NCBI GenBank assembly: GCA_015486055.1
Contig: WFSJ01000039.1
Coordinates: forward strand, 1-47,715
Direction: 5' to 3'
Source: Acidobacteriota bacterium
GTDB lineage: Bacteria; Acidobacteriota; Aminicenantia; S016-38
Length of the DNA stretch: 47,715 nucleotides
Positions 23,654-43,712 of the stretch are shown here, in pieces (within the stretch, counting starts at the first letter, position 1; every line of letters starts with the position of its first letter). The notes under the pieces are model-generated. The model searched no databases. It was given only the letters and a program-made list of their open reading frames with translations, and was not told where the DNA came from. The position numbers and the translations under genes are program-made.

Positions 23654-24904
23654 TTACTCGTATCTCAGGGCTTCAATTGGATTCTGGTTGGCTGCTTTGT
23701 AAGCTGGATAAATCCCGAAGAAAAGGCCTACTAAGGTAGAAACCCCGACGCCGAGTATAACACCGAAAGGTGTAACCGCCGCGGGGAAATGCGCCAATGC
23801 CTTTGCAAGAAACGAAACGGCAAATCCGAGGAACATTCCCAAAAGGCCCCCAATGAGTGAAAGAGTGATAGCTTCCACGATAAACTGGAACATTATATGT
23901 TTTTTCTTCGCACCAATTGCCCTCCTTAGACCGATCTCAGAGGTTCTCTCTCTGAGGGAAACAAGCATTATGTTCATAATACCTATGCCACCCACCAGAA
24001 GAGATATTGAAGCAATGAGAATTCCCACAAGGAACACTCCTGAGACTAACTGATTGAAGAGGTTATTAACATATTCCTGGGTATATATTGCAAAGTCATT
24101 ATCATCCTTTGGCTTTAGCTTTCTCCTCATTCTCATCACTTCTATCATCTCATCCATCGCTATATTCAAAGACTCAGGGCTTTTGGGCCTTGCAAGAATG
24201 ACCATTCCACCCCACATTCTTCGCTTGGCACTTGGATATTTTTTAAAGAGAGTCGTTATTGGAATTATCACAAGGTTGTCCCGTGATTGACCGAAAAAAC
24301 TCCCTAATTTCTCCAGGACCCCGACGACCCTGTAGCTGGTATTCCCAATATGAAGGCGTTTGCCAACAGGGTCAACTCCCGGGTAGAGATTTTCCGCAAC
24401 ATCTGCTCCTAAAATAGCAACGTTTGCTTTCCCGGTCTCCTCGCCTTTGGTAAAGAACCTTCCGTTCATGAGATTGACTTTTACAACCTCTGGATAATCA
24501 GAACTCGTTCCTATTAGTATTACGCCACTTGTAGTTGAATACCTGGATTTAATAATTCTCCGCTCAAACATTTTTATCTGAGCCGCAGAATCTTCAAGGT
24601 AAGACAGCTTCTTAACTGCCTTAAGGTCCTCAAGGGTAAGGTTCTTTCTCATCCTCAGCTTCTTCGGTAATCTCCCCATCCTTATTCCTGGTTCAAATTT
24701 GGACATATATATAAGATTGGATCCAACTATTTCCATTTGCTTCTCAAAGCTCACTTTTATTCCTTCTGTCACCCCAACCATGGCAATTACTGTAGTAACC
24801 CCTATTATTATCCCAAGGACTGTGAGAAATGCCCTCGTTTTGTTTCTCATCAAAGAGGAAAAGGCTGCCCTTAGAAGCTCTGATAGAAGGGTAAATCTTC
24901 TCAC
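23654..24904 (-). CDS. MacB/FtsX-type ABC transporter permease (second of pair)
   Basis: This 416-residue type VII ABC permease has an N-terminal helix (about 25-48: AFLTVLGIIIGVTTVIAMVG), a MacB_PCD periplasmic domain (about 50-255) and three C-terminal helices containing GGIGIMNIMLVSLRERTSEIGLRRA-type signatures of the FtsX fold. Such proteins act as mechanotransmitters for efflux or lipoprotein export. The GTG start overlaps the preceding permease stop by 4 nt (GTGA). No ATP-binding subunit or membrane-fusion protein is present in the window, so the partners must be encoded elsewhere. Confidence 0.88.
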   Translation of the reverse strand: MRRFTLLSELLRAAFSSLMRNKTRAFLTVLGIIIGVTTVIAMVGVTEGIKVSFEKQMEIVGSNLIYMSKFEPGIRMGRLPKKLRMRKNLTLEDLKAVKKLSYLEDSAAQIKMFERRIIKSRYSTTSGVILIGTSSDYPEVVKVNLMNGRFFTKGEETGKANVAILGADVAENLYPGVDPVGKRLHIGNTSYRVVGVLEKLGSFFGQSRDNLVIIPITTLFKKYPSAKRRMWGGMVILARPKSPESLNIAMDEMIEVMRMRRKLKPKDDNDFAIYTQEYVNNLFNQLVSGVFLVGILIASISLLVGGIGIMNIMLVSLRERTSEIGLRRAIGAKKKHIMFQFIVEAITLSLIGGLLGMFLGFAVSFLAKALAHFPAAVTPFGVILGVGVSTLVGLFFGIYPAYKAANQNPIEALRYE

Positions 24905-26133
24905 ATCTCGCCCCTCAAAGCCTCAACAGGACTTAGGGCAGCGGCTTTTGACGAGGGGCATATGCCAAATATTAAACCTGTAAGAGCTGCAATTCCTATT
25001 CCGAGCAGGGAGGACCAAAGCTCAATCCTCGCAGGAAGCGGGGAGAAAGAGTTTATCAACACTACAAGAAACCATCCAAGGAGAAAACCCGCAATTCCTC
25101 CTATGCTCGTAAGGAATACTGCCTCAAGAAGAAACTGCCCCATTATGTCAGTCTTCCTTGCACCTACTGCTCTTCTTATTCCTATCTCTGGAACTCTTTC
25201 TGCAACAGAAACAAGCATTATGTTCATAACCACTATCCCCCCAACAAGAAGGGAAACTGAGGAAATTATAATCATAGCTATATAAAGAGTGGAGGTGAGG
25301 CTTTTGTAAATTTTAAGCATTGACTCAGATGTGGTAAATGAAAAGTCATCCGGGTTCTTTGGAGAAATATGCCTAAGGGAACGCAATATCCCCCTGACCT
25401 CTTCTGTAGCCTCTTCCATCTTCGCAGGAGTGGATGTGTGAACTTTTATACCTATATCTTTCCTTTTATTAAATACAGTGTAGAAGCTTTTTAATGGGAC
25501 AAAAATATAATTGTCAAGTGAAATGCCAAGAATCTTCCCCCTCTTAGCCTCAACACCTATTATTCTAAATCTGACACCTTTTATCTTGAGCCATTTCCCT
25601 ATAGGGTCAACATTTGGGAAGAGGTTTTCCTTCAATGACCAGCCTATCGTAGCTACCTTAGCCCCTGTTATTGCCTCTTCCTCTGTTATGGGTCTCCCAT
25701 CGTAAAGGTCTCTTACGCCTCCTATTTCTCTTGAAAGTTCGGTCTCACCCACAACAACCACATCATCAAGTTCTTTCCCTCTATAGTTAACATCAGCAGA
25801 ACCAGAATCAGAAGCTCCAACCTTCTCGCAGGAAACACACAGTTGTTTGATCCTGAAATAGTAAGACATGGGAAATCTTTTCCTCTTTGAATACTTCAGG
25901 TAGTTTTTCCATGAGGTTACAATGTCAGGCATCCTCTGAACTGTAAAGTCCGATGTCCCATAAGGGATTATTTTTTTCTCAACATAGTTATTGAGCCCCT
26001 GAATTGTGCCTATTATTGCTATTATTGTGGAGACTGCAATTATTATTCCCAGAAGAGTTAAGAATGTCCTAAGCTTGTTCCTCAAAAGGGACCCAGTTGC
26101 AAGCCTAAGGGTTTCTCCTATAGAAATTTTCAT
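24901..26133 (-). CDS. MacB/FtsX-type ABC transporter permease (first of pair)
   Basis: This 410-residue protein has the same layout as its neighbour: an N-terminal helix (RNKLRTFLTLLGIIIAVSTI), a large periplasmic MacB_PCD domain and three C-terminal helices with GGIVVMNIMLVSVAERVPEI and IGIRRAVGARK. The two are diverged duplicates and may form a heterodimer. I chose the ATG at 26133 (MKISIGETLRLATGSL). It lacks an SD, but TATAAT ends exactly 6 nt before it, 23 bp after the M16 stop, suggesting a leaderless internal transcript. A TTG further upstream at 26175 would overlap the M16 gene. Confidence 0.87.
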   Translation of the reverse strand: MKISIGETLRLATGSLLRNKLRTFLTLLGIIIAVSTIIAIIGTIQGLNNYVEKKIIPYGTSDFTVQRMPDIVTSWKNYLKYSKRKRFPMSYYFRIKQLCVSCEKVGASDSGSADVNYRGKELDDVVVVGETELSREIGGVRDLYDGRPITEEEAITGAKVATIGWSLKENLFPNVDPIGKWLKIKGVRFRIIGVEAKRGKILGISLDNYIFVPLKSFYTVFNKRKDIGIKVHTSTPAKMEEATEEVRGILRSLRHISPKNPDDFSFTTSESMLKIYKSLTSTLYIAMIIISSVSLLVGGIVVMNIMLVSVAERVPEIGIRRAVGARKTDIMGQFLLEAVFLTSIGGIAGFLLGWFLVVLINSFSPLPARIELWSSLLGIGIAALTGLIFGICPSSKAAALSPVEALRGEM

Positions 26134-26155: not shown

Positions 26156-28552
26156 TCATCGCAGTTCGCCGGCAAGGGAAATCTTCACAGGGGAACCCAT
26201 ACTCGAAAAGGCTCTCCCAATATCTTCAACTCTCAGCGAGTCAACGATGGAGGGCAGTTTCCACATATATTCTGGCCCCAATCCAAGGTGAATGAAGAAT
26301 CCCATATAATATGCTCTGTTTATCTTTCTTTCCCCATACCTCAGGACTCTGGCAGCAAGAGAAATTTTGTATCTTTTAAATTCTTCCTTCCCAAGCTTCA
26401 TGGGATTAAAAGAGGAGAGAACCTTCTGAGCAGCTTCTTCAACATCAGGCACATCTACTTTTGTTGTTGGAATAAGTAATACCATAAGTCCCTGATGATT
26501 TGAAAAGGGATAGAAATAGAAGGAAACAGAATAGGCGAGTCCTTTCCTTTCCCTTACAACTTCCACTATTCTGTCCCTCAATATATGAGCAAGAAGAAGA
26601 TAGGAAGGATAGCTTCCATTATCCCAGGCAACCTTCCATCCAAGCCCAAATATGCCTCCTCTTATTTTGCCCGAAGGTTTTAAAGAATCTCTAAATGGTA
26701 CTGAAATTCCCTTCTGGTTCCTTAACCTCTTCAAACAGTCTGGAACAATTTTTCCCCCCACACCTGTGAATATAATATTTGAAGGGGAGAAATACCTGTT
26801 TTTGAAGGAAATTAAAGATTTAAATGTGGAAGAAGACACCAATTTTGCATTTCCGTAAAGGGGAAAATTAAAAGGAGGGGAAAGAAGCCTGAACCTCATC
26901 TTTTCCTCACCAACCCAGCTCCTTTTTCTACTCAAATATTCAAGCTCACCTAAGATTTTCTTCCTTGCCTCCTTAAAGGCTTTTTCCTTTAAAGGTTGCT
27001 CCATTACCCTGCACACTGCTCTGCTAATCTCTTTCTCATCTCTTCCCACAAACCTCATATAGGAATAATCCTTACTGAGATAATAATCATCAAAGGGAAA
27101 ATATGGATTATCAGTAAATTGATAGCTTATGCCTCTTTCCTCAAGAAAATCCCTGTGTTGCAATTCAAGGGTTTTGAAAAGAAGATGGGCCTGGCCAGGG
27201 AAGCTTTCTTTCTCTGCCCTCCTTTCCACAAGAATATGATAGGCTTTTATTTCTTCTTCTGAGCCTATAAGCGCATATCTCAGGCCGTTTTTAAGCTTTT
27301 TGAGACTAACTCTGGGAATTTTTTCTGAGAATATCTTCTCCTTAACAGGCTGCTGGATAAGTGCATAATACTTCTTTATCCCTTTCAGGGCTCTTTCCTC
27401 ATCCTGCAGCGAAGTAGCGTTTATCTCCCTGAGAAATGCCTCTCTTCTCTCTTCGCTGCACAGTATCTCCCACTTGCCAATTTCTCTTGCAAGCTGGAGT
27501 TTTTTCTCATTTATGAATATTCTTGAGCTCAGGTATTCCTTCCTTGCCTTTTCAATCTCCTCCTGATTTATGGAGCTTTTGAGAGCTTGTGATATGGATT
27601 TTTTCACTTCCTCCTTGTTCAATTCTCTATAAGGGAACCCGTAAAAATGGATAAAGGAAATTCCTCTGTGCTTCTCATAATATGATTCATAGTTATTCAT
27701 TCCCAGACCTAAGGCAATTTTGTCTCCAATTACAGGGGCTAAAATCTCATACGCTCCAGAACCCTTTTGACAAAGAGAACTTGCCTCAAGAGCAATGTCT
27801 ATTCTTTTAAGCTTACTATTGGCCAATTCAATCTTATTCCACTTTGGATTAATCTCTGGAAGAGGAATTTCAGCTTCCTTTCTATTTACAGAAAATATTC
27901 TTTCAAGTTCGTCCTCTATGTTCTTGAAGTGAAAATCGCCTACGATTACGAGCTTCATTCTAAAAGGCGCATAGAGTTTCCTCCAGAAATTCATCACCCG
28001 CTCTCTTTTCAGATTCTTTACTATAGTGGGATAACCAAGGACAGGAGTCTCGTAGGGGGTACCTTCAAGCCAGTTCTCATAGAATTTATAGCCTGAGGAC
28101 TCCATTGGATTGAGGTAATCCTTCACTATCTCCTGATATACAACTCCCTTCTCCTTTTTGAACTCAGCAGGAGGGAATGAACTCATGAATATCATTTCAC
28201 TAATAAGCCTCATCGCAGGAATTATCTGGGATGGAGGAGAAGAAAATTCAAAGGAAACAAAGTCCTTTCTCGTAAAGGCATTGTAATATGTTCCAATATT
28301 GGCAAAAGCGTTTTCAAGCTCTTCCCTTGACCTTCTAAGAGTTCCGTCAAAGAGCATGTGCTCCAAGAAATGGCTTAATCCCTTTTCACCCTGGGCTTCA
28401 TAGGAAGATCCTGCCTTTATAGCTATAACCGCCGAGACAAGGGGATAATCATGATCTTCCTGATAGATTACCTCTGCTCCGTTCTTCAAGGTATATCTCT
28501 GAAACGAAAACAACAGAGAAATTAAAAAGAAAGAAAGAATTATTTTTCTCAT
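26156..28552 (-). CDS. Secreted M16-family zinc metallopeptidase (two-domain)
   Basis: This 798-residue protein has a signal peptide (about 1-17) and two tandem M16 units. The N-terminal unit carries the inverted zinc motif H61-F-L-E64-H65 and the distal glutamate E141 in GVVYQEI. The C-terminal unit, with PFSNHQGLMVLLIPTTK and RERKGLAYSVSFYF, lacks HxxEH, as usual for the inactive half. M16 enzymes degrade small peptides or process exported proteins in the periplasm. The ATG at 28552 was chosen for its AGGTGGT SD; a longer frame to 28615 runs into the tRNA gene. The start is only 10 nt from the CCA end of tRNA-Val. Confidence 0.9.
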   Translation of the reverse strand: MRKIILSFFLISLLFSFQRYTLKNGAEVIYQEDHDYPLVSAVIAIKAGSSYEAQGEKGLSHFLEHMLFDGTLRRSREELENAFANIGTYYNAFTRKDFVSFEFSSPPSQIIPAMRLISEMIFMSSFPPAEFKKEKGVVYQEIVKDYLNPMESSGYKFYENWLEGTPYETPVLGYPTIVKNLKRERVMNFWRKLYAPFRMKLVIVGDFHFKNIEDELERIFSVNRKEAEIPLPEINPKWNKIELANSKLKRIDIALEASSLCQKGSGAYEILAPVIGDKIALGLGMNNYESYYEKHRGISFIHFYGFPYRELNKEEVKKSISQALKSSINQEEIEKARKEYLSSRIFINEKKLQLAREIGKWEILCSEERREAFLREINATSLQDEERALKGIKKYYALIQQPVKEKIFSEKIPRVSLKKLKNGLRYALIGSEEEIKAYHILVERRAEKESFPGQAHLLFKTLELQHRDFLEERGISYQFTDNPYFPFDDYYLSKDYSYMRFVGRDEKEISRAVCRVMEQPLKEKAFKEARKKILGELEYLSRKRSWVGEEKMRFRLLSPPFNFPLYGNAKLVSSSTFKSLISFKNRYFSPSNIIFTGVGGKIVPDCLKRLRNQKGISVPFRDSLKPSGKIRGGIFGLGWKVAWDNGSYPSYLLLAHILRDRIVEVVRERKGLAYSVSFYFYPFSNHQGLMVLLIPTTKVDVPDVEEAAQKVLSSFNPMKLGKEEFKRYKISLAARVLRYGERKINRAYYMGFFIHLGLGPEYMWKLPSIVDSLRVEDIGRAFSSMGSPVKISLAGELR

Positions 28553-28562
28553 ACCACCTGAA

Positions 28563-28637
28563 TGGTGGGCGACAGAGGACTTGAACCTCTGACCACTACC
28601 GTGTGAAGGTAGCACTCTACCGCTGAGTTAGTCGCCC
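28563..28637 (-). tRNA. tRNA-Val (anticodon CAC)
   Basis: A complete 75-nt cloverleaf can be folded: acceptor GGGCGAC/GTCGCCC, D arm ACTC/GAGT, anticodon arm CTACC/GGTAG around the loop TTCACAC (anticodon CAC, reads GUG), a short variable loop and a T arm AGAGG/CCTCT around TTCAAGT. The discriminator is A and CCA is encoded (28563-28565). The M16 gene begins 10 nt downstream on the same strand, so the two are probably co-transcribed. Confidence 0.97.
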
Positions 28638-28648
28638 ACTACACAAAA

Positions 28649-28676
28649 ATTATAAAACTCCCCTTAAGAATGTCAA
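28649..28676 (-). promoter_or_regulatory. Consensus promoter of tRNA-Val and the M16 run
   Basis: On the minus strand, perfect TTGACA (28671-28676) and perfect TATAAT (28649-28654) are separated by 16 bp. The -10 ends 11 nt before the first tRNA base, leaving a 5' leader of about 5 nt. This is the strongest promoter by consensus in the window, as expected for a stable RNA gene. A GGGG run lies in the spacer. Confidence 0.8.
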
Positions 28677-41621: not shown

Positions 41622-43712
41622 GTGTTCAGGAAGAAAGAGCTTATTTCCGCCGCTCTTATTGTCGGAGCTTTTATAGTTCTCTTTGCCGTAGAGATGTATA
41701 TCTCTAACATTTCTCCTATGGCAGGCGCCTCGGAAACCCTTCTTCTCTTTTTCCTATGGAACATAGTGATAATACTCTTCCTTACCCTGGTTTTTGTCCT
41801 CGGGAGAACTTTCTTCAAGCTTTACATTGAGAGAAAGAAAATGGCTTTGGGAGCGCAGCTTAAAACCAAGCTTGTTATGTTCTTTTTCCTATTCTCACTT
41901 GTCCCAACAATAATGATATTTTTCTTTGCATCGGACATAATAGGCAGGTCAGTTGAAAGCTGGTTCAAAACACCAATGGATAAAGTAGTAGAGGAAATAG
42001 ATTCAGTATCGAAAGAATTTTATGAGAGCTGGAAGCCCCATCTCCTGCATTATGCTAAGTTAATAAGAGGGCAAGTAAAGGGAGAGGAATCTTTTAAAGG
42101 ACTTTTCAATAAGGTCAGGGGGAAGATGATAGAATATAACATTGACCTTATTAGCATATATGATAGGAATGGAGAAATATTTACATTGCTGAATCCCTCT
42201 CTTCCTCTCAGGTCTTACAGGGATGTATCTTCAATGGCTATAAATAAAGGAATGATAGGCGAGGATACATGTGTGATGGACAGGATGGAAAAGGGAGATA
42301 TTATAAGGTGCATAGCTTCAAAGAGAAGGGCTTCTCATTACATAGTTATTGTAGGAAAATTTGTTCCCCAGAGCATTTCCCAGAAAGTTGCGCTTCTTGA
42401 GTCAATCGTAACAAGATATAGGGAAATGAAACTCCTGAGCAATCCAATGAAAACTACTTACATGCTCCTCCTCATACTCCTTTCCATCCTCATCCTTTTT
42501 TCCTCATCCTGGGTGGGAATTCATCTTGCGAAAAACATAACCCAGCCTGTCGAGAGGCTTCTTTCCGCGACCGAAGAATTATCAAAGGGAAACTTCTCAG
42601 TAAAAATAGAACATGAGAGTTCAGATGAAATTGGACTTTTGGTGAATGCCTTCAACAGGATGGTGGAGGATTTGAGAAAGCAGAGGGGAGAAATAGAAGA
42701 GAGAAAAAATTACATAGAAATTGTTTTAGATACCATAAATCCAGGCGTAATCGGAATTTCTAAGGAAGGGAAGATAATTTCAGCAAATCCCTCCGCGAGA
42801 AAAATACTCAACCTTGAGGGCAAAATAGGCCTTCCTTTGGAAGAAGCAGTAGAGGACGAGGAGACAAAGAAGATACTTAAGGAAGGAATGGATAAGGGAG
42901 TTGCTCTTGATTCAAGGGAGGTAGTGAGGAAAAAAGGTGGGGAAACAAGCCATCTTGTTATCAACTTCGTGCCCATAAGGAAAGGGAAGCAAATAAAGGG
43001 GGGCATTGTGGTTATTGAGGATATAACCCCCATAATGAATACTCAGAAGATGGAAGTATGGAGGGAGGTTGCAACAAGAGTTGCCCACGAGATAAAAAAT
43101 CCTCTTACTCCTATAAAGCTCTCGGCCCAAAGAATCATATCCAAACTCCAATCCCCTAATCCAGACATTAAGGAAATAGAAAGCGCTGCCAAAACAATAC
43201 TCTCGGAAACGGTCTCCATAAAAAGCCTTGCCGAGGACTTTTCCCAGATGGCTCGGATGCCTCAACTGAGAAGGATGCCCTATTCCCTGAAAAAACTTCT
43301 CGGTGAACTCTACGAATCTTACAGGACAACATACTCAGAGATAAAATTTTCCCTTGAAGTAGATGAAAATCTCCCTGAGATTTTGTATTTTGACCCCGAT
43401 CAGATGAAGAGAGCTGTTAGAAACCTCCTGAACAATGCAGTTGAGGCTGTGGGCAAAGGTGACAGCATAAAGCTCAGAGGAGAAGCCGATCTTGAAAAGG
43501 GGATATGGAGGATAATAGTGAAAGATACCGGCCCCGGGATTTCGGATGAAGACAAATCCAGAATTTTTACGCCTTATTTCTCAAGGAAGAAGGGAGGTTC
43601 AGGACTCGGTTTACCAATAGTAATGCACATAATAAGGGAACACAACGGCAAAATATATGTCAGAGATAATAAACCGAGGGGAACAGAATTCATAATAGAG
43701 GTGCCAGTTTGA
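41622..43712 (+). CDS. ntrY: NtrY-type sensor histidine kinase
   Basis: This 696-residue membrane kinase has helices at about 10-30, 39-62, 82-103 and 279-300, a periplasmic sensor region (104-278), HAMP (about 300-355) and PAS (about 360-470). HisKA follows with H489 in VAHEIKNPLTPIKLSAQRI, then a HATPase domain with NNAVEAV, DTGPGISDED and GGSGLGLPI. The three helices before the sensor and the HExKNPLTP motif are typical of NtrY. NtrY/NtrX systems respond to nitrogen or redox state and to envelope changes in different bacteria. The start is GTG without an SD. It is the first gene of an operon with its regulator. Confidence 0.9.
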   Translation: MFRKKELISAALIVGAFIVLFAVEMYISNISPMAGASETLLLFFLWNIVIILFLTLVFVLGRTFFKLYIERKKMALGAQLKTKLVMFFFLFSLVPTIMIFFFASDIIGRSVESWFKTPMDKVVEEIDSVSKEFYESWKPHLLHYAKLIRGQVKGEESFKGLFNKVRGKMIEYNIDLISIYDRNGEIFTLLNPSLPLRSYRDVSSMAINKGMIGEDTCVMDRMEKGDIIRCIASKRRASHYIVIVGKFVPQSISQKVALLESIVTRYREMKLLSNPMKTTYMLLLILLSILILFSSSWVGIHLAKNITQPVERLLSATEELSKGNFSVKIEHESSDEIGLLVNAFNRMVEDLRKQRGEIEERKNYIEIVLDTINPGVIGISKEGKIISANPSARKILNLEGKIGLPLEEAVEDEETKKILKEGMDKGVALDSREVVRKKGGETSHLVINFVPIRKGKQIKGGIVVIEDITPIMNTQKMEVWREVATRVAHEIKNPLTPIKLSAQRIISKLQSPNPDIKEIESAAKTILSETVSIKSLAEDFSQMARMPQLRRMPYSLKKLLGELYESYRTTYSEIKFSLEVDENLPEILYFDPDQMKRAVRNLLNNAVEAVGKGDSIKLRGEADLEKGIWRIIVKDTGPGISDEDKSRIFTPYFSRKKGGSGLGLPIVMHIIREHNGKIYVRDNKPRGTEFIIEVPV

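What the first reader, a model, noticed from the sequence alone, without database searches (positions are those of the whole stretch)
28540..28676. tRNA-Val CCA end abuts and can pair with the ribosome-binding site of the M16 gene
The encoded CCA of tRNA-Val is 10 nt from the M16 ATG, and AGGTGGT is the only SD. The junction reads CCACC-ATTCA-GGTGG, so the 3' end of the unprocessed tRNA can form a 5-bp hairpin with the SD, in competition with the last acceptor pairs. Cutting after CCA would free the SD but leave a leader of only 10 nt. Translation of a secreted peptidase could thus depend on tRNA 3' processing. The promoter ahead is a perfect TTGACA-16-TATAAT.
Basis: partly seen in the sequence, partly recalled or inferred. 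Interest (0 to 1): 0.5.

Follow-up and report, generated by a model that had tools for sequence, protein, structure and literature searches.

The report
tRNA genes serving as mRNA leaders
In an unnamed family of bacteria, about half of the tRNA genes that stand alone or end a tRNA cluster sit only 7-19 bases ahead of a protein gene that usually lacks a ribosome-binding site, which suggests that cutting out the tRNA makes the start of the messenger, much as in animal mitochondria; the hairpin in the original finding looks like a peculiarity of one genome.

Summary
In detail: tRNA-Val(CAC) ends in an encoded CCA at 28563 and the M16 peptidase ATG (28552) follows after TTCAGGTGGT, behind a perfect TTGACA-16-TATAAT. 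The proposed CCACC/GGTGG switch is not supported: the only relative found with the same junction (G002) has CCA-TTTTTTAT-ATG, without SD or that pairing, and 10% of shuffled spacers pair as well. What is conserved is the tight tRNA-CDS junction. In three of the family's seven genomes about half of the solo or cluster-last tRNAs have an ATG of a long ORF within 19 nt (16/32, 11/23, 17/33), against 3/25, 1/34 and 2/33 in three other genomes. Of 18 such genes here, 16 have recognised families (thrS, galU, prs, tilS, tig, secE, lepB, surE and others). Most lack an SD and a promoter at the start codon. Elsewhere this genome has leaderless genes (-10 box 6 nt before the start), and the two junction genes that could be compared have such a box where they lie away from the tRNA. 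Best explanation: tRNA 3' processing replaces a promoter as the source of near-leaderless mRNAs, a bacterial tRNA punctuation. There are no RNA data, and no canonical RNase Z was identified.

The parts
28671..28676 (-). -35 hexamer TTGACA of the tRNA-Val promoter
   Evidence: 12/12 consensus match with the -10 at 16 nt; TTGACA-16-TATAAT also in G002, TTGACT-16-TATAAT in G004
28649..28654 (-). -10 hexamer TATAAT, 11 nt before the tRNA 5' end
28563..28637 (-). tRNA-Val, anticodon CAC, CCA encoded
   Evidence: ARAGORN; RF00005 hit over the gathering cut-off, one of 44 tRNAs in the genome
28553..28562 (-). 10-nt junction TTCAGGTGGT between the tRNA 3' end and the M16 start codon; would be the whole mRNA leader if the transcript is cut after CCA
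   Evidence: sequence; no TANNNT hexamer within 12 nt before the ATG
28553..28559 (-). SD-like AGGTGGT; absent from the sister genome
   Evidence: anti-SD GGCTGGATCACCTCC found once in the genome, just ahead of tRNA-Ile; G002 has TTTTTTAT instead
28553..28568 (-). possible hairpin of tRNA 3' end and SD: CCACC/GGTGG as claimed, or ACCAU/GUGGU without loss of acceptor pairs
   Evidence: fold of precursor and of the 16-mer; shuffle control 10%; not conserved
26156..28552 (-). M16 peptidase (798 aa) with a hydrophobic, signal-like N-terminus and an HFLEH motif (both by eye)
   Evidence: PF00675 E 2e-24, PF05193 E 3e-20; ATG and N-terminal MRK shared by the five orthologues with an intact 5' end
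24901..26133 (-). MacB/FtsX-type permease adjoining the end of the M16 gene, probably in the same operon (inferred)
   Evidence: PF12704, PF02687; ATG 14 codons into the listed ORF

Best explanation
The tRNA-Val gene and the M16 gene form one transcription unit driven by the strong tRNA promoter. Removal of the tRNA 3' trailer by an endonuclease releases an mRNA with a 5' leader of about 10 nt (8 nt in G002), which is translated as a nearly leaderless mRNA. This is one case of a design shared across the family, in which the tRNA cut, instead of a promoter at the start codon, defines the mRNA 5' end: a bacterial form of tRNA punctuation. Because a folded tRNA 7-10 nt from the start codon would lie inside the mRNA track of the 30S subunit (general knowledge), translation should have to wait for the cut. 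Shown from sequence: the junctions, their spacing, conservation of partners, scarcity of SD and of start-codon promoters, tRNA promoters, and leaderless signals elsewhere. Inferred: cotranscription, cutting, and translation of the short-leader product. The SD-like motif in this genome may help M16 translation, but it is not part of the shared design.
For: Junctions: ATG of a long ORF 0-19 nt after solo or cluster-last tRNAs in 16/32 (G000), 11/23 (G002), 17/33 (G004), against 3/25 (G037), 1/34 (G022), 2/33 (G064); Fisher p 3e-7, 1.2e-5, 1.2e-7 against the three pooled controls. Within each family genome ORF starts pile up in the first 20 nt (20-nt bins 0-99: 16,1,3,2,3; 12,1,0,1,0; 17,2,2,3,1), not in the controls (3,2,3,2,1; 1,2,4,2,1; 2,5,3,2,4), so base composition does not explain it. 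No spacer under 7 nt among these 44. Of 18 junction genes in G000 (two with TTG starts), 16 have recognised families, and SurE, GalU, FolE2, Tig and acylphosphatase align from residue 1 or 2. TANNNT ends 5-8 nt before the start in only 1/18, 0/13, 1/19 junction genes, whereas over 106 genes of this genome the hexamer-to-start distance peaks at 6 nt (14 genes; 3 at 5 nt, 2 at 7 nt; next highest value 8, at 18 nt). SD-like motif in 2/18 junction genes against 40/90 other genes, p 0.008. Natural swaps: M16 next to the tRNA has no TANNNT within 12 nt of the ATG (G000, G002), but its orthologues away from the tRNA have one at 6-7 nt (4 of 4: G003-G006); the response-regulator gene after the same tRNA has none at that distance when 10-13 nt away (G004, G005) but has TAATAT at 6 nt when 36-38 nt away (G003, G006); the GTG-start gene 31-46 nt after tRNA-Glu has TATAAT at 6 nt in 3 of 3.
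Against: No RNA data. No protein of G000, G002, G004, G005, G022, G037 or G064 reaches the NCBIfam RNase Z cut-off (5 of the 14 control genomes fall below it too). The two best candidates of G000 are metallo-beta-lactamase proteins, one matching the profile without its middle, the other only its first half, so the cutting enzyme is unknown. M16 and tig do carry SD-like motifs. Leaders of 7-19 nt are longer than those of strict leaderless mRNAs. TTTT in the first 9 nt is also found after tRNAs without a close downstream gene (8/16 ATG junctions, 5/14 others in G000), so part of the transcripts may end there. In the G002 precursor the predicted fold pairs the U-run of the leader with A-rich early codons, so the leader may be structured there in another way. 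The tRNA-Val/M16 pair itself is shared by only two genomes.
Confidence: 0.55

Rival explanations
1. SD-sequestering switch as proposed: the tRNA 3' end pairs with the M16 SD, and tRNA processing frees it.
For: The complementarity exists and folds at -7.3 kcal/mol alone; the precursor fold also hides GUGGU. The anti-SD is intact.
Against: Pairing and SD are absent in G002; 10% of shuffles pair as well; no other of the 16 ATG junctions of G000 reaches 5 pairs, though 13 of these had a shorter tRNA tail to pair with because no CCA is encoded.
Confidence: 0.08
2. Simple cotranscription without a role for cutting: the strong tRNA promoter drives the downstream gene, and ribosomes start on the unprocessed or randomly trimmed RNA at a T-rich, SD-less site, for example with protein S1.
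For: Spacers are T-rich (mean 4.6 of the first 8 nt at the 16 ATG junctions of G000); promoters of 9/12 or better within 60 nt of 12/16 G000 junction tRNAs that are first in their unit (and of 10/17 other first tRNAs).
Against: A folded tRNA 7-9 nt from the start codon should clash with the 30S subunit (general knowledge, not tested). It does not explain why no start lies nearer than 7 nt or why the leaderless box is missing only at short junctions.
Confidence: 0.22
3. tRNA plus T-run acts as a leaky terminator or attenuator: most transcription ends in the T-run after the tRNA, and read-through sets a low, fixed level of the downstream mRNA.
For: TTTT in the first 9 nt in 8/16 G000, 7/11 G002 and 8/17 G004 ATG junctions, and in 5/14, 5/10 and 5/14 of tRNAs without a close downstream gene. 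It would solve the mismatch between tRNA and mRNA levels.
Against: The acceptor stem is not a normal terminator hairpin, and about half of the junctions lack TTTT. It is compatible with the best explanation rather than exclusive of it.
Confidence: 0.1
4. Independent promoters inside the tRNA genes make leaderless mRNAs.
For: Leaderless signals are common in this genome.
Against: TANNNT at 5-8 nt before the start in only 2 of 50 junction genes, and none within 12 nt for M16.
Confidence: 0.05

Closest known systems
tRNA punctuation of animal mitochondrial transcripts (recalled; abstracts seen)
   Same: tRNA genes lie directly ahead of coding sequences without SD; cutting out the tRNA would create the mRNA 5' end
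   Different: Here tRNA units have sigma-70-type promoters, spacers are 7-19 nt instead of about zero (recalled), a bacterial anti-SD is present and other genes have SDs, and cutting is not shown
Leaderless (TA-led) bacterial genes, Zheng et al. 2011, PMC3160421 (passages seen)
   Same: Start without SD on an mRNA with little or no leader; the genome has the same TANNNT signal about 12 bp before many starts
   Different: Junction genes lack the TANNNT box; the 5' end would come from RNA processing
tRNA-Thr ahead of tuf and tRNA-Trp ahead of secE, as in many bacteria (recalled)
   Same: Cotranscription of a tRNA with a translation or secretion gene; both neighbours occur here
   Different: tRNA-Thr(GGT) and the tuf-like ORF (by eye) are 31 nt apart with an SD; the other junctions are shorter, mostly SD-less, and involve about half of the solo or cluster-last tRNAs
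RNA map of Propionibacterium acnes, PMC3848588 (passages seen)
   Same: Reports endonucleolytic cuts at or near the 3' CCA of tRNAs and many leaderless mRNAs in one bacterium, without an obvious RNase Z homologue
   Different: The passages seen do not link the two; leaderless mRNAs there were found from transcription start sites

Membership tests
   Pairing and SD absent in G002, the one relative with the junction; shuffle control 10%; G001 not testable because of a contig end
TA-led leaderless gene | TANNNT box ending about 6 nt before the start codon | tested here: not met
   Absent for M16 in G000 and G002 and, at 5-8 nt, in 48 of 50 junction genes; present in the 4 M16 orthologues away from the tRNA
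tRNA punctuation | tRNA directly ahead of a coding sequence on the same strand, recurrent in the genome | tested here: met
   16/32, 11/23, 17/33 solo or cluster-last tRNAs in three of seven family genomes
tRNA punctuation | no or almost no nucleotides between tRNA and coding sequence | tested here: not met
   Spacers 7-19 nt (19 was the limit of the count), none of 44 below 7
tRNA punctuation | downstream mRNA without SD | tested here: met
   SD-like motif in only 2/18, 1/13, 1/19 junction genes; M16 of this genome is one of the exceptions
tRNA punctuation | mRNA 5' end made by tRNA cleavage | not testable with these tools
   needs 5'-end mapping
tRNA punctuation | RNase Z-type enzyme present | tested here: inconclusive
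   Best single stretches 63.8 bits (G000; 92.5 for the whole protein) and 101.8 bits (G022), cut-off 292.95; 5 of 14 control genomes also fall below the cut-off

The most novel reading that the evidence does not exclude
A bacterial lineage has made tRNA excision a genome-wide way of creating translatable mRNA 5' ends: about half of its solo or cluster-last tRNA genes act as removable leaders of housekeeping genes (secretion, tRNA charging and modification, nucleotide synthesis, chaperone), so that their translation is gated by tRNA maturation. Cells would thereby tie synthesis of, for example, FtsY, ThrS, TilS, PRPP synthase and trigger factor to the rate of tRNA production.
Probability: 0.35. 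Interest if true: 0.85.

Novelty: new variant of a known kind. Interest (0 to 1): 0.58.

Why it matters
If the junctions work as inferred, a bacterium uses at genome scale a strategy known from mitochondria: tRNA excision as the step that makes mRNAs translatable. That would couple tRNA supply to the expression of housekeeping genes, offer a bacterial parallel for how mitochondrial punctuation could arise, and warn gene finders (which could call the GTG at 28615, inside the tRNA, as the M16 start). It can be tested with one 5'-end RNA-seq data set.

Tried and rejected
CCACC/GGTGG switch: rejected as the shared mechanism. Own promoter at the junction: rejected for 48 of 50 genes at the leaderless distance. 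T-run as a translation signal: not specific, also found after tRNAs without a close downstream gene.

Crude survey of the phylum with GGTTCRANYCC N{18,29} ATG against N{60,71} ATG (297 genomes each): G000 19 vs 8, G003 18 vs 13, G004 22 vs 13, G005 22 vs 12; I did not total the other 293, many of which show similar near and far counts. The counts proved unreliable: G022 had 17 near matches but only 1 of 34 real junctions. Nineteen near matches that I picked by eye from G041, G043, G016 and G030 gave 7 with an ORF of 120 aa or more starting within 17 nt, among them tilS-like genes (by eye) 8 nt after tRNA-Met in G041 and G043; so single junctions exist outside the family, but no genome-wide set was shown there.

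RNase Z: not identified. A name for the organism was not obtained; the one genome-contig scan found two distant relatives of M16 (28-30% identity).

Literature: the listings (no paper; titles and abstract starts of the listed papers; several searches matched more papers than were listed, for example 86 with 20 listed and 111 with 8 listed) and passages of PMC4633059, PMC3848588, PMC3160421, PMC12340547 showed me no report of this arrangement in bacteria. Subscription papers and preprints are not held, so this is weak evidence of absence.

Limits of the counts: three of the seven family genomes seen were surveyed in full (G000, G002, G004); G003, G005, G006 only at tRNA-Val and M16. G037 was analysed with the 33 tRNAs found around 30 places copied from the cut list, of 41 in all. 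Dropped before the count: tRNAs with under 150 nt of sequence downstream (1, 0, 0, 2, 3, 1 in G000, G002, G004, G037, G022, G064) and tRNAs followed by another tRNA within 80 nt (11, 9, 10, 6, 6, 9). The Fisher tests treat tRNAs as independent although the family genomes are related. The gene finding behind searches is a simple longest-ORF method that takes the first ATG in the first 30 codons, so some starts are wrong, and its list shows at least one repeated gene.

Full report
What is there. On the minus strand, a tRNA-Val(CAC) gene (28637-28563, CCA encoded) is followed after 10 nt, TTCAGGTGGT, by the ATG (28552) of a 798-aa M16 peptidase. Ahead of the tRNA lies a perfect TTGACA-16-TATAAT. 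The M16 reading frame is open upstream into the tRNA (GTG at 28615), but the five orthologues with an intact 5' end also start at an ATG with MRK.

The hairpin. The claimed CCACC/GGTGG helix folds at -7.3 kcal/mol alone. In the 100-nt precursor the predicted structure keeps the full acceptor stem and pairs ACCAU with GUGGU, so there is no forced competition. Of the 16 ATG junctions in this genome it has the longest pairing (5), but 10% of shuffles of its own spacer do as well. In G002, the only relative found with the same tRNA-Val-M16 junction (M16 58% identical), the spacer is TTTTTTAT: no SD and no such pairing; the predicted fold there instead pairs the U-run, with the last A of CCA, to A-rich early codons. 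In G001 the gene is cut by a contig end. The anti-SD sequence is present in this genome, so AGGTGGT can be a real but private SD.

The junction is the conserved thing. I examined the tRNA 3' junctions of G000 (44 tRNAs), G002 (32) and G004 (43) of the same family, G037 (33 of 41) and G022 (43) of the same class, and G064 (43) of the same phylum outside the class. After leaving out tRNAs followed by another tRNA and truncated ones, an ATG that opens a long ORF lies 0-19 nt downstream in 16 of 32, 11 of 23 and 17 of 33 cases in the family, but in 3 of 25, 1 of 34 and 2 of 33 in the others (Fisher p 1.2e-5 or lower). The starts are concentrated in the first 20 nt and absent from 0-6 nt. With two TTG genes seen in all three genomes (a signal peptidase, lepB, after tRNA-Asp and an unnamed gene after tRNA-Leu(CAG)) the sets are 18, 13 and 19.

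Which genes. In G000: M16, lepB, ftsY (SRP54_N domain; the gene is cut by the contig end), a YitT-type membrane protein, secE, thrS, a CdsZ-like zinc-ribbon protein, surE, acylphosphatase, folE2, galU, tilS, prs, sppA, a DUF4388/DnaJ protein, tig, and two without a family. Some of these, cut short by the stretch that I held, score below the NCBIfam cut-off (thrS, ftsY, sppA), as does CdsZ. Ten anticodon-gene pairs with ATG starts recur in all three family genomes, judged by eye from the N-terminal sequences: Arg-acg, Gln-ttg, Leu-caa, Leu-tag, Met/tilS, Phe, Pro-cgg, Pro-ggg, Ser-gct, and Trp (the last by position and length only). Spacer sequences differ between genomes.

How translation starts. 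Among 106 genes from the window and tRNA-flanking stretches of this genome, the distance from a TANNNT hexamer to the start codon peaks at 6 nt (14 genes; 3 at 5 nt and 2 at 7 nt; next highest 8, at 18 nt), the signature of leaderless genes described by Zheng et al. 2011 (PMC3160421, passages). Other genes have an SD. Junction genes mostly show neither: SD-like motif in 2/18, 1/13, 1/19 (against 40/90 other genes of G000, p 0.008) and a TANNNT at 5-8 nt in 1/18, 0/13, 1/19. The SD windows differ (spacer only against 13 nt), so that contrast is indicative.

Natural swaps. M16 beside the tRNA (G000, G002) has no TANNNT within 12 nt of the ATG; in G003-G006, where the gene lies elsewhere, it has one 6-7 nt before the ATG (4 of 4). 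The response-regulator gene that follows the same tRNA-Val in the other genus lies 10 and 13 nt away without a box at leaderless distance in G004 and G005, but 38 and 36 nt away with TAATAT at 6 nt in G003 and G006. The GTG-start gene behind tRNA-Glu, 31-46 nt away, has TATAAT at 6 nt in 3 of 3 genomes. In these three cases a gene has either its own leaderless promoter or a tRNA immediately ahead of it. This is the strongest sign that the tRNA junction replaces the promoter as the source of a short-leader mRNA.

Mechanism. Shown: promoters of 9/12 or better within 60 nt of 12/16 junction tRNAs in G000 that are first in their unit (10/17 of other first tRNAs; 8% in shuffles), tight junctions, scarce SDs, scarce start-codon promoters. 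Inferred: one transcript, an endonucleolytic cut at the tRNA 3' end, and translation of an mRNA with 7-19 nt of leader. From general knowledge of the 30S mRNA track, a folded tRNA so close to the start codon should block initiation until it is cut. Weak points: there are no RNA data; no protein of seven genomes passes the NCBIfam RNase Z cut-off, although 5 of 14 control genomes fall below it too; and T-runs after tRNAs occur with and without a close downstream gene, so a leaky terminator may also operate.

Known or new. Mitochondrial tRNA punctuation and bacterial leaderless genes are both well known; their combination as a genome-wide habit of a bacterium did not appear in the listings of nine searches of an open-access library. 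I therefore call it a new variant of a known kind, with the mitochondrial membership failing on spacer length and untestable on cleavage.

Verdict. Observation confirmed; hairpin reading not supported; dependence on tRNA processing plausible and, as an architecture shared across the family, more interesting than the original finding.

Noticed in passing
G000:C1:1374-2093, G000:C54:8761-9204 and six other genomes: No protein reaches the NCBIfam RNase Z cut-off in seven genomes of the phylum; the best candidates in G000 are two metallo-beta-lactamase proteins that match the profile only in part. Many tRNA genes encode no CCA, so some 3' endonuclease is expected.
   Followed up: partly
44 ATG junctions of G000, G002, G004: No junction shorter than 7 nt and a mode at 8 nt; the lower limit is unexplained (room for the nuclease, or for the ribosome).
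   Followed up: no
L050, L093, L122: tRNA-Glu(TTC) is followed 31-46 nt later by a GTG-start gene with TATAAT exactly 6 nt before the GTG in all three family genomes: a likely leaderless gene.
   Followed up: yes
window 28563-28615: The M16 frame is open into the tRNA up to a GTG at 28615; an automatic gene finder could start M16 inside the tRNA gene.
   Followed up: no
window 41622 (+), 12035 (+), 37856 (-), 15927 (-): Starts with a TANNNT box 6 nt ahead (for example TATAAT-TTCTTC-GTG at 41622): further likely leaderless genes in the window.
   Followed up: partly
L230 (G041), L240 (G043): A tRNA-Met to tilS-like gene (by eye) junction of 8 nt occurs also in another family of the class, so this junction may be older than the rest.
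   Followed up: partly
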